A stretch of 64,000 bases of DNA from Brevibacterium yomogidense (GTDB lineage: Bacteria > Actinomycetota > Actinomycetes > Actinomycetales > Brevibacteriaceae). The stretch spans positions 124,001-188,000 of the forward strand of contig NZ_FWFF01000017.1 of assembly GCF_900163715.1 (NCBI RefSeq), given 5' to 3'. Within the stretch, counting starts at the first letter, position 1. Every line of letters begins with the position of its first letter. Positions 12,598 to 18,218 of the stretch are shown here, piece by piece. The notes beneath the pieces were generated by a model. That model made no database searches, had not been told where the DNA came from, and saw only the letters and a program-made list of their open reading frames with translations. The translations under genes and the position numbers were made by a program.

Positions 12598-13167
12598 ATG
12601 AGCACTCGCATCATCCTGATCGGACCCCCCGGGGCGGGGAAGGGCACGCAGGCTGCCCGACTCAGCGAGGCACTGGACGTCCCCGCGATCTCCACGGGCG
12701 ACATCTTCCGGGCCAACGTCAAAGGCGAGACGGAGCTGGGCAAGACCGCCAAGCGGTACATGGACGCGGGGGAGTACGTCCCCGACGAGGTGACCAACTC
12801 GATGGTGGCGGACCGACTGTCCCAGGAGGACGCGAAGGGCGGCTTCCTGCTCGACGGCTACCCGCGCACGCAGGCCCAGGTGGAAGAGCTCGACGGGATG
12901 CTCGAGGCTGCCGGGCACTCGCTGGACCACGTCGTCGAACTCACCGCCGATGTCGACGAGGTCGTCGGTCGTCTGCTGGCCCGCGCGTCCCTCCAGGGTC
13001 GTTCGGACGACACCGAGGACGTCATCAGGCACCGCCTCGACGTGTACGCGGAGCAGACGCAGCCTCTCACGGAGATCTATGCGCAGCGCGGACTCCTCAA
13101 GCAGGTCGACGGCCTCGGTGAGGTCGAGGCGATCACGGGCCGGATCCTCGAGGCGATCGGCCGCTGA
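12598..13167 (+). CDS. adk: Adenylate kinase
   Basis: Adenylate kinase (189 aa) interconverts ATP + AMP and 2 ADP in the cytosol. The P-loop GPPGAGKGTQ is at residues 9-18 and the AMP-binding DGYPRTQAQ is present. The lid is the short form (no zinc-finger or long insert), usual for actinobacteria. ATG 12598 follows AGAAAAGGAATCTC; the longer upstream frame has no conserved sequence. It overlaps map by one base. Confidence 0.97.
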   Translation: MSTRIILIGPPGAGKGTQAARLSEALDVPAISTGDIFRANVKGETELGKTAKRYMDAGEYVPDEVTNSMVADRLSQEDAKGGFLLDGYPRTQAQVEELDGMLEAAGHSLDHVVELTADVDEVVGRLLARASLQGRSDDTEDVIRHRLDVYAEQTQPLTEIYAQRGLLKQVDGLGEVEAITGRILEAIGR

Positions 13168-13991
13168 TGTTTGATTCGGTCGAGCTGAAGAGCGACCAGC
13201 AGATCCGCACGATGCGTCGTGCGGGACTCGTCACACGGGCGGCCCTGGAGGCCGCCCGTGCGGCGTGTGTGCCGGGTGCTACGACGTCGGACATCGATGC
13301 GGCCGGTGCGAAGGTCATCGCGGACATGGGCGCCACGTCGAACTTCAAGGGCTACCACGGTTTCCCCGGCACGCTGTGCGTGTCGGTCAACGAGGTCGTC
13401 GTCCATGGGATCCCGGGCGACCGCGTCCTGGAGCAGGGCGACATGGTGTCGATCGACGGCGGTGCGATCGTCGACGGTCTGCACGGCGATTCGGCGATCA
13501 CGGTGTTCGTCGGCGGTGAGGAAGCGGCCGATCCAGCCCATGTGCGGATCTCTCGGACCACCGAGGAGATCATGTGGGCGGGCATCGCCGCGATGGCGAC
13601 GGGCCGGAAGGTCGGTGAGATCGGTGCGGCCATCGAGGAGCGTGCGCAGCAGCTCGCTCCGGACCTGGGCCTCATCGAGGACTTCACCGGGCACGGGATC
13701 GGGTCGCAGATGCACATGGAGCCCGAGGTCCTGAACTACCGCGCGAAGCGCATGGGCCCCAAGCTGAAGCCGGGGATGTGCCTGGCCGTCGAGCCGATGC
13801 TGGTGGGCGGCGGCATCGACACGAAGACCCTCGCTGACGACTGGACGGTCGTGACCGTCGACGGGGCCCGTGCCAGCCACTGGGAGCATTCCGTGGCCCG
13901 GCACGCCGGAGGCATCTGGGTGCTCACCTCCCCGGACGGGGGAGCGGAGCGGCTCAGGCCCTACGGCGTCGCCCCCGTGCCGCTGGACTGA
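13167..13991 (+). CDS. map: Methionine aminopeptidase, type I
   Basis: Removes the initiator Met from nascent proteins. At 274 aa it has the type I pita-bread core with all metal ligands: Asp97 (VSIDGGA), Asp108 (LHGDSA), His176 (GHGIG), Glu209 (VEPML) and Glu240 (HWEHS), plus catalytic His80. It is translationally coupled to adk (TGATG). In many actinobacteria map is followed directly by infA, but here about 4 kb of unrelated genes intervene. The stop codon lies inside a 19-bp tandem duplication. Confidence 0.97.
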   Translation: MFDSVELKSDQQIRTMRRAGLVTRAALEAARAACVPGATTSDIDAAGAKVIADMGATSNFKGYHGFPGTLCVSVNEVVVHGIPGDRVLEQGDMVSIDGGAIVDGLHGDSAITVFVGGEEAADPAHVRISRTTEEIMWAGIAAMATGRKVGEIGAAIEERAQQLAPDLGLIEDFTGHGIGSQMHMEPEVLNYRAKRMGPKLKPGMCLAVEPMLVGGGIDTKTLADDWTVVTVDGARASHWEHSVARHAGGIWVLTSPDGGAERLRPYGVAPVPLD

Positions 13992-14015: not shown

Positions 14016-14203
14016 CACTGCTGCGGGTACCCGGTCAGCCCACGGTGAGGTCGACAGTCACGAGATCCGGACCGCCGTGATCATTTCGTGACCACAATGA
14101 ACACAAGTTCCGTCATGGCGGGTCGGCTGGCAGAGTCGGCGTAGCGATGCACGCGCGATGTCGTGTGCAGATGCGGACAGACATCGAAACGAAGGATGAA
14201 CGA

Positions 14204-16015
14204 ATGGCACACCCCACCACGGGTAAGCGCTTCGTCGCTCTGAGCGCGGCTGTCGCGCTGGGCTTCGGCGGCGCGATGATCGCGGGCCCTGCGTCCGCGG
14301 CTCCGAGCACGGACCTCAAGACTGCTGCGGCAGAGGCATTCACCAGCAGCGAGAGCATCGCGGCCATCGGCCACGGCGAGGACGGCTCGCTCGTCGCGCA
14401 GGTCGTCGCGGGCTCCGATGAGGCCGAGGTCGAGAAGGCCCTCGAGCCCGCCAACGCGGTCGCGCAGGACCAGACCGGTGAGGACCTCGTCGTCCAGGAA
14501 GTCGCATCGACCTACTCCACCCAGAGCCCGGAGCCGTCGAGCACGGCGACCGACGGCGCTGCCTACGAGGCATCCGACGATGTCGTCGCCGGTGCCGGCT
14601 ACGTCGTGGAGACCTCTGCCGGGGCGGGGCTGTGCTCCGTCGGCTTCCCGGCGACCGGTCCCGAGGGCGAGGACGCGATCATCACCGCGGGCCACTGCTC
14701 CGGCGGTGAGGCCACGGGCGACGTGTACGTCGAGCGCCCCTCGACGTCGAACGTCTTCACCGACAGCTACGACACCGCGGAGTGGGACCAGTCCCGCAAG
14801 CTCGGTGAGTTCACGCACTCGCAGTACGGCCCGAAGGTGCTCGGCGACGTCGAGACGGACGCAGACCTCGATCCTGAGCAGATGCAGGACTTCGCCGTCA
14901 TCACGGTCGACGAGTCGGCCGGCTTCAACCTCATCGGCGAGGCGGCGACGTGGAGCGAGGAGTCCGGCCAGGCCGACGACCTCGCGTCCGACACCACCGA
15001 CATCACCGGTGTGCACGACGTGACGAGCGAGGACATCGGCTCGGAGGTCTTCCACTCCGGACGGACCACCGGCAAGACGGCAGGCGACATCGGCTGGGAC
15101 GAGTCCAACGGCAAGGTGTCGATCGGCATCGTCGACGGCTACGCGCCCGTCACAGACGACGCGGGCAACGAATACATGGTCTACGGCTTCGCCTCGGAGA
15201 CCAACGTCGCCGGCGGCGACTCCGGCGGCGCCGTCATGATGGGCGACAAGGCTGTGGGCGTCGTGTCCGGCGGCATCGAGGCGAGCGCTGACATGCCCGC
15301 CATGCTGTGGACCGCAGAGCTGGCCGAGGGCCTCACGCACCTCCCCGGCGACTACGAGATCAAGACGTCCGGCGAATCGACCGAGGATCCCTCGGAGACG
15401 CCGTCCGAGGACCCCACGGAGGAGCCCACCGAGGATCCGACCACACCGGCGCCGACTCCCACGGAGACGGATGACGCGGATGTGGACGCGGAACTGTCCG
15501 TCGACCCGCAGGAGATCGCCGCTGAGCGCTTCCTCGCAGAGGACGAGGAGCAGGCCGAGTCCGACGACCGCGGTGTGAAGTACACGGTCGAGGGCGTGGA
15601 GCCGGGCTCCGAGGTCCTCTTCGAGACCTTCACCGGTTCGGACGCGGCTTCGGCCAACGCAGGTTCCGAAGAGGCTCCTGCTGAGGAGACCGACCAGGAG
15701 CCGGCCAAGTCGATCACCGTCACGGCCAATGAGGACGGCGTCGCGCAGTCCCGCATCTGGGGCATGACGACTGCCGAGGCCGAGGCCTACATCGGTGAGT
15801 ACGACGTGGTCGCTCAGACTGAGGAAGAGACCCTCGAGGGCTCCTTCTCCGTCGTCGCCGGTGACGGCGACCAGGGCGAAGGCGGCGACGAGGGCGAGGG
15901 CGGCGAGGACCTGCCCCGCACGGGTTCGACCGTCGCACCGCTGGCTGCAGGCGCAGCCGGACTGGTCGCACTCGGTGGCGCTCTGGTCTACGTCGCACGT
16001 CGTCGTCAGGCCTGA
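14204..16015 (+). CDS. Secreted, sortase-anchored S1-family serine protease
   Basis: 603 aa, with a Sec signal peptide (about residues 1-32, ending GPASA), a pro-region to about residue 125 and a chymotrypsin-fold protease domain. The triad is His164 (TAGHCSGG), Asp229 (MQDFAVI) and Ser340 (NVAGGDSGGAV); Cys144 and Cys165 may form the disulfide next to His. A Pro/Glu/Thr linker (residues 390-425) leads to a beta-rich, all-acidic domain and a C-terminal LPRTG (570-574), membrane segment and RRR tail. It resembles streptogrisin/alpha-lytic-type proteases but is fixed to the wall. Start ATG 14204 has GAAGGA 7 nt upstream. Its substrate is unknown. Confidence 0.9.
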   Translation: MAHPTTGKRFVALSAAVALGFGGAMIAGPASAAPSTDLKTAAAEAFTSSESIAAIGHGEDGSLVAQVVAGSDEAEVEKALEPANAVAQDQTGEDLVVQEVASTYSTQSPEPSSTATDGAAYEASDDVVAGAGYVVETSAGAGLCSVGFPATGPEGEDAIITAGHCSGGEATGDVYVERPSTSNVFTDSYDTAEWDQSRKLGEFTHSQYGPKVLGDVETDADLDPEQMQDFAVITVDESAGFNLIGEAATWSEESGQADDLASDTTDITGVHDVTSEDIGSEVFHSGRTTGKTAGDIGWDESNGKVSIGIVDGYAPVTDDAGNEYMVYGFASETNVAGGDSGGAVMMGDKAVGVVSGGIEASADMPAMLWTAELAEGLTHLPGDYEIKTSGESTEDPSETPSEDPTEEPTEDPTTPAPTPTETDDADVDAELSVDPQEIAAERFLAEDEEQAESDDRGVKYTVEGVEPGSEVLFETFTGSDAASANAGSEEAPAEETDQEPAKSITVTANEDGVAQSRIWGMTTAEAEAYIGEYDVVAQTEEETLEGSFSVVAGDGDQGEGGDEGEGGEDLPRTGSTVAPLAAGAAGLVALGGALVYVARRRQA

Positions 16016-16186: not shown

Positions 16187-16537
16187 ATGGCCTCTGATGA
16201 GCAGACCAGCAGCATCCTGCAGGGCCGGTGGGAGGCGGAGGTCCCCACCACAGCGTTCCTCGAGTTCCGCGGACCCGCACCCGTCGGCGGCCTGCTCGGC
16301 GGGAAGCCGGGCGAAGGCGTGCTGTCCGGCTCAGACGGATGCAACGGCGTCGGCGGCTGGTACGCACCGGACGGCGAGACGGCGACCATCCGGCGCGGCC
16401 TGAGCACACTCAAGGCATGTCCCGGGGTGGACACATGGCTGTCGAAGGCCTCCTCTGTGCGCGCAGACGGAACTGTTCTCCACGTCTACGACGGGACCGG
16501 CGAAGAGATCGGCGTGCTGACGCGCGCGGAGACGTGA
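16187..16537 (+). CDS. META-domain (HslJ-like) protein
   Basis: 116 aa with no signal peptide. SGSDGCNGVGGWYAPDGETATI, a Cys near residue 78 (LKACPGVDTWL) and a closing VLHVYDGTGEEIGVLTR match the small META beta-domain found in HslJ and related proteins, whose biochemical role is poorly defined. Start ATG 16187 is preceded by AAGGAG. A TAGCGT -10 candidate lies about 50 bp upstream, just after the terminator of the protease gene. It is convergent with the calpain-like gene. Confidence 0.75.
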   Translation: MASDEQTSSILQGRWEAEVPTTAFLEFRGPAPVGGLLGGKPGEGVLSGSDGCNGVGGWYAPDGETATIRRGLSTLKACPGVDTWLSKASSVRADGTVLHVYDGTGEEIGVLTRAET

Positions 16538-16544
16538 GCGGAGT

Positions 16545-16583
16545 CCTGATCGGGGACCCTGATCAGACACCCGGATCAGCGCA
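16545..16583 (+). repeat. 13-bp degenerate tandem repeat, three units
   Basis: CCTGATCGGGGAC, CCTGATCAGACAC, CCGGATCAGCGCA in tandem, 7 bp after the META-gene stop and covering the last codons of the convergent calpain-like gene. Confidence 0.8.
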
Positions 16584-17727
16584 GCGACGGCCCCACGTTC
16601 ACGCTGATGAACGCGCGCCGCAGCTGTCGCTCGGACAGGTAGAGGTCCGTTCGGCGCAGGGCCGGGCTCTCGCCGCCGCCCACCGGGTTGCGGACATGCA
16701 GTCTCACCGGCGCACCGGAGTCGGGTCGGCCGTCTTCTGTGCAGCGGAGTGCCCGCACTGCGGTGTACACGTGGGCATCCATGAAGGCGATGCGGCCGGT
16801 GCCGTCCTCGCGCGCGACTGTGAAGGAGCCCCGGGGGCGGGCGAGCGTCGACAGCACTACGGGCCGCCCCGCGTCCAGCCACTCCGCGATGTGCTCGACG
16901 GTGCGCGGGACGGGGCGCGCGGGACACCACCGTCCGGTGAGCAGCAGGAGGCCGATCCCCGCGAAGTCATTCTGGAGGCGACGATAGGACCCGTTCGCCC
17001 AGACCGCCGCGGCGGCCTTCTCGATGAGCGACGCGGCGTTCGGCCGCCGCCTGCGGTCGCCGGCGCGATGTGCGACAGGGACCCGCGTGCTCACGACGAC
17101 CCGGCGACGCCGCACCGGGAGGAACGGGATCCGCCGGAGGATGGGCACGGCGAGGGCCGGTTCGAGGAGATCGATCGCTGTGAGCCGCACCGATGGATCC
17201 GCGGTCCCGGATTCGCCCCGGGTGGGCCCAGCAGCGGGGGTGGCCGAACCTTCGGAGGAGATCAGCCCCTGCAGGAAGCCCGGTCGGACCTGCTCGCAGG
17301 CGGACATCACGGCCACCAGCCAGCAGTCGCCCAACCGACCCTGCCGCACGCGGGGGCGGCGCGATGTCAGCGCACTCCTCGGCACGGACACGAAGCGCTG
17401 GGGCCCGCGGGGGACCGGCTCGAGACCCGGCGCCCAGCGCAGGACCTCGAGGGCCCGACGACTGGACAGGGTCGGCCAGAGCCGCTCCCACAGGCGCGCA
17501 CCGGGAGACGGGCGGAGTCCGCGCATGAGCATCCGGAGGAGGGCCTCGGGAGCGGGGACGGCCGTGAGGGACGTGGTCTGAGCGCGATCGAGGATCCGTG
17601 CCGCGGCCATCCGATCCGCCGGCGCGGCGGCCGGGTGCAGGAGAGTCGGCAGCACGCGGTGCGCGAGCCTGCGCGTGGGGCCGTCGAGCGCGAGCGACCT
17701 GTCCGGCGGGTCGGTGGCCTGGGGCAT
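16576..17727 (-). CDS. Calpain-like cysteine protease (peptidase C2 family)
   Basis: 383 aa, probably cytosolic: no signal peptide or membrane segment. The calpain triad is recognisable: oxyanion Gln129 and Cys135 in RQGRLGDCWLVAVMSA, His319 in MDAHVYTAVRAL, Asn347 in VRNPVGGG; the helper stretch LIEKAAAAVWANGSYRRLQ is also family-like. An N-terminal region of about 120 residues has no recognised domain, and there is no EF-hand. ATG 17727 is chosen because GGAGGAG lies 7 nt upstream; a GTG 24 nt earlier has none. Target unknown. It faces the META gene tail to tail and lies inside the ribosomal superoperon. Confidence 0.8.
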   Translation of the reverse strand: MPQATDPPDRSLALDGPTRRLAHRVLPTLLHPAAAPADRMAAARILDRAQTTSLTAVPAPEALLRMLMRGLRPSPGARLWERLWPTLSSRRALEVLRWAPGLEPVPRGPQRFVSVPRSALTSRRPRVRQGRLGDCWLVAVMSACEQVRPGFLQGLISSEGSATPAAGPTRGESGTADPSVRLTAIDLLEPALAVPILRRIPFLPVRRRRVVVSTRVPVAHRAGDRRRRPNAASLIEKAAAAVWANGSYRRLQNDFAGIGLLLLTGRWCPARPVPRTVEHIAEWLDAGRPVVLSTLARPRGSFTVAREDGTGRIAFMDAHVYTAVRALRCTEDGRPDSGAPVRLHVRNPVGGGESPALRRTDLYLSERQLRRAFISVNVGPSLR

Positions 17728-17771: not shown

Positions 17772-17800
17772 TGGCGTATGAGTCCGCGGTGCTGTAGAGT
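17772..17800 (+). promoter_or_regulatory. Candidate infA promoter
   Basis: TAGAGT (17795-17800) is a good actinobacterial -10; the -35 candidate TGGCGT (17772-17777, 17-bp spacer) is weak. It would give the alpha-operon genes their own start after the inserted protease cassette, with a leader of about 190 nt. Confidence 0.4.
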
Positions 17801-17996
17801 GTTCTCTTGGCCTGTGACCACGGGACGTCTGTGCACGCTGCAGGGTGATCGATGTGTGGAGAGTCTATCCACGATGGTCCACCAGTGAGGTGCAGCAGGC
17901 TCCCGGACGCTCAGGCTGCCGGTCGACGAGGGGCGAAGCCCTGACAAGACGAACGACACGCGGTGATACCGCGGGAAATTGAGGGTGAGAACACAC

Positions 17997-18218
17997 ATGG
18001 CCAAAAAAGAAGGGGTCATCGAGATCGAGGGAACCGTGCTGGAAGCGCTTCCGAACGCCTCGTTCAAGGTCGAGCTGACCAATGGCCACAAGGTTCTCGC
18101 TCACATCTCCGGCAAGATGCGTCAGCACTACATCCGCATCCTGCCTGAGGACCGGGTCGTCGTGGAGCTTTCTCCCTACGACCTGTCGCGCGGCCGCATC
18201 GTCTACCGGTACAAGTAA
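17997..18218 (+). CDS. infA: Translation initiation factor IF-1
   Basis: IF-1 (73 aa) is an OB-fold protein that occupies the 30S A site during initiation. [21 protein letters not shown] to GRIVYRYK is near consensus. The start ATG 17997 is fixed by homology; the in-frame ATG 18 nt upstream only adds non-conserved residues. It leads the infA-rpmJ-rpsM-rpsK-rpoA-rplQ run. Confidence 0.97.

What the first reader, a model, noticed from the sequence alone, without database searches (positions are those of the whole stretch)
16576..17727. Bacterial calpain-like protease with intact triad and no signal peptide
Gln129/Cys135, His319 and Asn347 match the calpain catalytic pattern, yet there are no calcium-binding domains and the N-terminal 120 residues match nothing I know. 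A cytosolic or non-classically exported calpain next to a wall protease hints at a toxin, effector or processing role.
Basis: partly seen in the sequence, partly recalled or inferred. Interest (0 to 1): 0.5.

Follow-up and report, generated by a model that had tools for sequence, protein, structure and literature searches.

The report
Cytosolic bacterial calpain beside infA
This is a real, probably working bacterial relative of the animal protease calpain that seems to stay inside the cell and has been passed down in part of the genus Brevibacterium, so it looks like an ordinary cell enzyme of unknown job rather than an exported toxin.

Summary
The minus-strand gene at 16576-17727 encodes 383 residues with Gln129, Cys135, His319 and Asn347 placed as in calpains. 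These four are invariant in all 17 homologues aligned, and the 19 best solved-structure matches of a family profile are all calpains. Foldseek ranks calpains first for two weak models. Most calcium-site side chains are missing.

The toxin/effector hint is not supported. In the genus (Brevibacterium), 18 of 57 genomes carry the gene, always divergent from infA, and those in the genus tree lie on one side of it, with one nested loss. Plasmid, phage and viral searches found no relative. No WXG100 domain, clear signal peptide or constant partner gene is seen. Relatives with WXG100-like or long N-termini are strongly acidic; this family and 14 other relatives are basic.

The wall protease and META gene next door form a pair that recurs without calpain. 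A conserved 25-bp element upstream fits infA better than the calpain.

Best reading: a cytosolic, calcium-independent C2 peptidase with a helical N-terminal extension, doing limited intracellular proteolysis. Substrate and activity are unknown. It is a new member of a known kind, near the short Brachybacterium-type calpains in print.

The parts
16576..17727 (-). calpain-like (C2) cysteine peptidase gene, 383 aa
17428..17727 (-). N-terminal region, residues 1 to about 100: helical in a low-confidence model, poorly conserved, no Pfam or NCBIfam match; absent from the two shortest family members
16579..17427 (-). catalytic domain, residues about 101-383
17341..17343 (-). codon of Gln129 (oxyanion-hole position, role recalled)
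   Evidence: codon place counted from the start
17323..17325 (-). codon of Cys135 (nucleophile)
   Evidence: codon read
16771..16773 (-). codon of His319
   Evidence: codon place counted from the start
16687..16689 (-). codon of Asn347
   Evidence: codon place counted from the start
17794..17818 (+). conserved element between the divergent calpain and infA genes; best read as the infA promoter region, not a calpain element
   Evidence: at most 5 mismatches upstream of infA in 56 of 57 genomes, 39 of them without calpain; in the own genome the only match at up to 3 mismatches, though the backwards control pattern also matched once
17997..18218 (+). infA, translation initiation factor IF-1 (name recalled from its sequence): the constant neighbour
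13167..13991 (+). map, methionine aminopeptidase (name recalled from its sequence): the other border of the interval
14147..16015 (+). LPXTG-anchored trypsin-like (S1) protease: neighbour, not shown to be part of the same unit
16187..16537 (+). META-domain-like protein (23.8 bits, cut-off 24), convergent with calpain; travels with the S1 protease

Best explanation
The gene encodes an intracellular papain-like cysteine peptidase of the calpain (C2) family. Shown by sequence: the catalytic residues and the calpain-type domain are present and conserved, and the protein has no evident export signal, is basic, and has lost most calcium ligands. Inferred: Cys135 attacks a peptide bond with help from His319, Asn347 and Gln129, independently of calcium, giving limited proteolysis of one or a few cytosolic proteins. 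Inferred and untested: the helical N-terminal extension of the longer members acts as a prosegment or anchor that restrains activity until it is moved or cut. Its fixed place beside infA reflects vertical inheritance in an interval that also collects other cargo, not co-expression, since it is transcribed away from infA.
For: Calpain profile matches with aligned Cys, His, Asn; Foldseek top 21 rows and top 27 rows all calpains; four catalytic positions invariant in 17 of 17 down to 32% identity to the window protein; purifying selection in 6 of 6 pairs; no segment of the 17 proteins reaches the 19-residue hydropathy of the control anchor (highest 1.65 against 1.97); basic catalytic domain in 17 of 17, as in 14 of 19 domains from outside the genus, whereas the 5 with a WXG100-like or long N-terminus are at -23 to -40; divergent from infA in 18 of 18 carrying genomes, with map on the other side in the 16 where the fetched stretch reaches it; presence follows the genus tree.
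Against: No activity has been shown here. Both structure models are poor (mean pLDDT 52.6 and 53.5), and VIA-align Z stays at 7.5 or below with staphopains tied with calpains. The Trp after Asn-Pro of the calpains is Val, Leu or His in 17 of 17. Pfam recognises only 13 of 17 members at E up to 0.01. In the short members L047 and L048 the 11-residue hydropathy within the first 45 residues is 1.68 and 1.94, not far from the secreted control (2.25); their longest hydrophobic stretch is the active-site helix. One genome has the gene split over two frames and one genome within the calpain-bearing side lacks it, so it is dispensable. Lack of a signal peptide does not exclude other export routes. The prosegment idea rests on no test.
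Confidence: 0.55

Rival explanations
1. An effector or interbacterial toxin exported without a classical signal, for example by an ESX-type system.
For: Some distant relatives do carry WXG100-like N-termini (L086 at 23.0 and L102 at 17.8 bits, both under the Pfam cut-off of 27.3), and PMC4631099 section 14 reports WXG100-calpain fusions.
Against: No WXG100 match in any of 17 members; opposite charge to the WXG100-like forms; no constant small partner among the families tracked, and the convergent META gene belongs with the S1 protease; clade-wide vertical inheritance; no match in plasmids, phages or viral contigs; no PADLOC match.
Confidence: 0.12
2. A partner of the wall-anchored peptidases in the same interval, for example a cytosolic guard that trims or destroys precursors that fail to be exported.
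For: An S1 or TAP-like peptidase lies in the interval in 13 of 18 calpain-bearing genomes and in 7 of 39 without.
Against: The counts are not independent on the tree; 5 of 18 lack such a neighbour; the wall anchor was checked by Pfam in only five of these proteins (three pass, one just under the cut-off, one without a match); S1-META pairs occur in genomes without calpain; relatives outside the genus sit beside phosphofructokinase instead.
Confidence: 0.1
3. A decaying or inactive relic kept by chance.
For: Gene split over two frames in one genome, absence in G023 and in the other side of the genus, loss of the Trp after Asn-Pro.
Against: Invariant catalytic residues across 17 sequences and dN/dS 0.19-0.32.
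Confidence: 0.1
4. A calcium-activated regulatory calpain like the animal enzymes.
For: Same family; Glu353 may correspond to one site-2 ligand (count).
Against: Both side-chain ligands of site 1 absent; protein too short for the full site 2; no further Pfam domain.
Confidence: 0.04

Closest known systems
Short bacterial calpains of the Brachybacterium type (PMC4631099; abstract, sections 10, 11, 13, 14 and search passages read)
   Same: Described there as short, chromosomal and with only the peptidase domain. Unnamed relatives that look like this type, fetched here, share the QGxLGDCW motif, a similar C-terminal end (FRRxFxSV or close) and a basic domain
   Different: The window protein has a roughly 100-residue helical N-terminal extension and lies by infA; the unnamed relatives lie by phosphofructokinase. 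Brevibacterium is not mentioned in the main text of that paper
WXG100-fused bacterial calpains (Herpetosiphon, Segniliparus in PMC4631099; L086 and L102 here)
   Same: Calpain catalytic domain
   Different: L086 and L102 are acidic, with a WXG100-like N-terminal region under the Pfam cut-off
Eukaryotic calpain protease cores (calpain-9, calpain-1)
   Same: Cys, His, Asn and Gln positions; first Foldseek matches
   Different: Most calcium ligands lost, no regulatory domains, shorter after the Asn, no Trp after Asn-Pro
Staphopains (C47)
   Same: Papain-like fold, tied Z in VIA-align
   Different: Secreted (recalled); no sequence match

Membership tests
Peptidase family C2 (calpain) | Sequence similarity to the calpain catalytic domain | tested here: met
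   Pfam 24.3 bits over a cut-off of 23.8, short alignment; profile against solved structures E 1.4e-7
Peptidase family C2 (calpain) | Catalytic Cys, His, Asn in order, with Gln before Cys | tested here: met
   Invariant in 17 of 17, aligned with calpain-9
Peptidase family C2 (calpain) | Papain-like fold of calpain type | tested here: inconclusive
   Foldseek ranks calpains first but models have mean pLDDT about 53 and VIA Z is 7.5 or below
Peptidase family C2 (calpain) | Peptidase activity | not testable with these tools
   needs purified protein
Calcium-dependent (classical) calpain | Calcium-site residues in the core and EF-hand or other regulatory domains | tested here: not met
   site-1 side chains replaced, site 2 incomplete (count with residues); no such Pfam domains
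ESX/WXG100 effector | WXG100-type N-terminal domain | tested here: not met
   no match in any of 17 members at E up to 0.01
Polymorphic toxin with immunity partner | Conserved small gene next to the toxin | tested here: inconclusive
   of the families tracked none but infA is constant beside the gene, but genes under 70 aa were not called and immunity genes can vary

The most novel reading that the evidence does not exclude
The Brevibacterium family and the phosphofructokinase-linked short calpains are two vertical descendants of an old cytosolic, calcium-free actinobacterial calpain with a housekeeping-type role, so that the patchy spread of calpains among bacteria reflects clade-wide loss more than recent transfer. 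Their arginine-rich, lysine-poor make-up (one lysine in 383 residues of the window protein, the conserved Lys237) might shield them from pupylation or from self-cleavage.
Probability: 0.15. Interest if true: 0.6.

Novelty: new member of a known kind. Interest (0 to 1): 0.33.

Why it matters
[quoted passage not shown] In Brevibacterium the same minority pattern is better explained by vertical inheritance at a fixed locus, with one large absence and one later loss. The named records of B. jeotgali and B. yomogidense carry the gene, so the role of a short bacterial calpain could be tested in them.

Tried and rejected
1. A conserved 25-bp element upstream of the calpain gene looked like a private operator. 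Searching it across the genus was not informative in itself: 42 of 57 genomes matched at up to 3 mismatches, but the backwards control pattern matched about as often. Scanning the 300 bp upstream of infA was: at most 5 mismatches in 56 of 57 genomes, including 39 of 39 without calpain (2-5 mismatches), and at most 4 in 53 of 57, against 28 and 1 of 1140 plain shuffles; L047 has 7, which is chance level, though at the same place as L048. The pattern was written from calpain-bearing loci, so their zero mismatches are by construction. It reads as the infA promoter region and was dropped as a calpain element. An earlier count said 57 of 57; 56 of 57 is right. The entry says 17 of 18 for the locus; the later count is 18 of 18 beside infA.

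2. META protein as a cognate inhibitor of the calpain: rejected, since META paralogues sit beside S1-protease paralogues elsewhere, also in genomes without calpain such as G023, and META-like matches occur in 53 of 57 genomes (many S1 matches cover only the C-terminal part). Inside the interval META is seen only with calpain (10 of 18 against 0 of 39), which I attribute to lineage.

3. Mobile or phage origin: viral contigs gave no relative, plasmids and phages no match, PHROGs and PADLOC none.

4. Lysine depletion as pupylation escape: Pup ligase is in 57 of 57 genomes, so the test does not discriminate. In 23 of 23 loci the lysine share is below the local background, but the four low-GC members have 5-8 lysines, so base composition explains at least part.

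5. The G042 hit (E 6.6e-5 with 3 stops; stretch L049) was not confirmed by the profile and was dropped as false. L046 is split over two frames and was left out of the alignments. From the order search I fetched 20 of 40 loci outside the genus, mostly the best-scoring and three weaker ones of my choice; 19 gave a usable domain, L098 did not; L088/L089 and L091/L095 are near-identical pairs. For 6 of the 14 basic ones the gene caller named no gene, so their start is not settled. From the genus tree 8 of 57 genomes were dropped for too few sites; the tree is midpoint-rooted and its support values were not inspected. L170, L187, L192, L195, L197, L038 and L047 have no map gene within the fetched stretch, so their interval is open on that side.

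6. The PF00648 search of the own genome found nothing and no control rang; I relied instead. Papain-like families not listed by VIA-align are not excluded.

Full report
What is there. The gene on the minus strand at 16576-17727 encodes 383 residues. Pfam Peptidase_C2 passes its cut-off by half a bit over a short stretch; NCBIfam finds nothing. A single-sequence search of solved structures gave calpain-9 at E 0.99. A profile from 17 homologues finds calpain-9 at E 1.4e-7, and all 19 distinct sequences with E up to 0.012 are calpains; two unrelated rows follow at E 0.32 and 0.66. In the printed alignments the catalytic Cys, His and Asn of calpains fall on Cys135, His319 and Asn347. Those and Gln129 are invariant in 17 of 17 homologues, which are 32-73% identical to the window protein. 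Two AlphaFold2 models made from the four sequences that the rules allowed are poor (mean pLDDT 52.6 and 53.5; pTM 0.50 and 0.61), yet Foldseek ranks calpains in the first 21 and first 27 places. VIA-align gives Z of 7.5 or less, with staphopains and calpains tied, so the fold test is supportive, not conclusive. The family differs from classical calpains: Val, Leu or His instead of Trp after Asn-Pro in 17 of 17, both side-chain ligands of calcium site 1 lost and site 2 incomplete (my count, residues, numbers of the catalytic residues recalled), and an end 36 residues after the Asn.

Who has it. The genus is Brevibacterium: three close homologues are in Brevibacterium records. With the family profile, 18 of 57 genus genomes have the gene. 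In all 18 it lies upstream of and divergent from infA; in 16 of them map lies on the other side, and in two (L038, L047) the fetched stretch does not reach it. In L042 and L043 map and infA were missed by my gene caller but found by tblastn. In a midpoint-rooted tree of four neighbouring housekeeping proteins for 49 of the 57 genomes, 33 of 34 genomes without calpain form one clade, and the 15 with calpain lie on the other side together with one genome without it, L180, where map and infA are 250 bp apart. The simplest history is vertical inheritance with one gain or loss at the base and one later loss. dN/dS is 0.19-0.32 in 6 of 6 pairs.

Surroundings. The map-infA interval is a variable region. 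Without calpain it holds an aminotransferase (37 of 39), a PaaX-like regulator (30 of 39), an MFS transporter (20 of 39) and a TAP-like peptidase (7 of 39); with calpain it holds META (10 of 18), S1 (9 of 18), TAP-like (6 of 18), aminotransferase (5 of 18) and PaaX-like (4 of 18) genes (tblastn with ten representatives at E up to 1e-8; Pfam names, PaaX and the window META under their cut-offs). A Gram-positive wall anchor was checked in five of these peptidases: the window and L037 S1 and the L044 TAP pass, the L042 S1 is just under the cut-off, the L048 TAP has none. S1 and META occur as a pair elsewhere in these genomes, with or without calpain, so META is best seen as the partner of S1. The conserved 25-bp element between calpain and infA fits infA: at most 5 mismatches in 56 of 57 upstream regions, 39 of them without calpain; the genome-wide pattern search was uninformative, since its backwards control matched about as often.

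Relatives further away. In the order, 54 of 396 genomes match the profile, 40 of them outside the genus. Of 20 loci fetched from these, 14, all of one family, have the match next to a phosphofructokinase gene (by clustering; Pfam in two of them). Five others have a called gene of 360-540 aa with a WXG100-like or long N-terminal region; of the four scanned, two have a WXG100 score under the cut-off (23.0 and 17.8 against 27.3) and two none. Of 19 domains with a usable sequence, 14 are basic, like all 17 of the genus, and those 5 are at -23 to -40. In a FastTree of the domains the genus is split from the others with local support 0.957 (part of the printed alignment was cut).

How it most likely works. 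A cytosolic, calcium-independent cysteine peptidase that makes limited cuts in intracellular proteins, with the N-terminal helical extension as a possible restraint. The catalytic part is well supported by sequence; cytosolic place is supported by lack of an evident export signal and by charge; substrate, activity and the role of the extension are inferred. The toxin, export and wall-protease-partner readings are weaker for the reasons given in the rivals.

Novelty. Family C2 in bacteria is known, short peptidase-only forms too. Searches for 'bacterial calpain' (14 papers, 13 listed), Brevibacterium with calpain (14 papers), 'C2 family cysteine protease' with actinobacteria (none) and calpain with WXG100 (2 papers) showed no paper on this family, judged from listings. 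Beyond listings I read the named parts of PMC4631099 and search passages of PMC9380684 and PMC13413365. Only the open library was searched. What is added is a genus-level, vertically inherited, syntenic clade, with a charge split between basic and export-type relatives.

Noticed in passing
window 17794-17818: Element TGTARRGT-N6-TTGGYCTGT-like on the infA strand, 124-275 bp upstream of infA in 56 of 57 genus genomes at up to 5 mismatches; likely the infA promoter. In L048 it lies inside the start of the divergent calpain gene.
   Followed up: yes
window 16576-17727: One lysine in 383 residues (59 arginines); lysine share of K+R is below the local background in 23 of 23 calpain loci, and no background gene is lower in 14 of them. 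Base composition explains part of it.
   Followed up: partly
L046 7782-9083: Calpain gene of one genome (G011) is split over two frames; assembly error or recent decay not resolved.
   Followed up: no
map-infA interval, L166-L204 and L032-L048: The interval between map and infA is a lineage-specific cargo site (aminotransferase, PaaX-like regulator, MFS, peptidases, calpain).
   Followed up: partly
L044 5251-8190 and L048 5643-8486: Large TAP-like alpha/beta hydrolase (Gram-positive anchor matched in L044, not in L048) in the interval of 6 of 18 carriers.
   Followed up: no
L085-L104: Short calpains next to phosphofructokinase in 14 loci of one other family of the order; L093 and L099 have Asp in place of the catalytic Asn.
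   Followed up: partly
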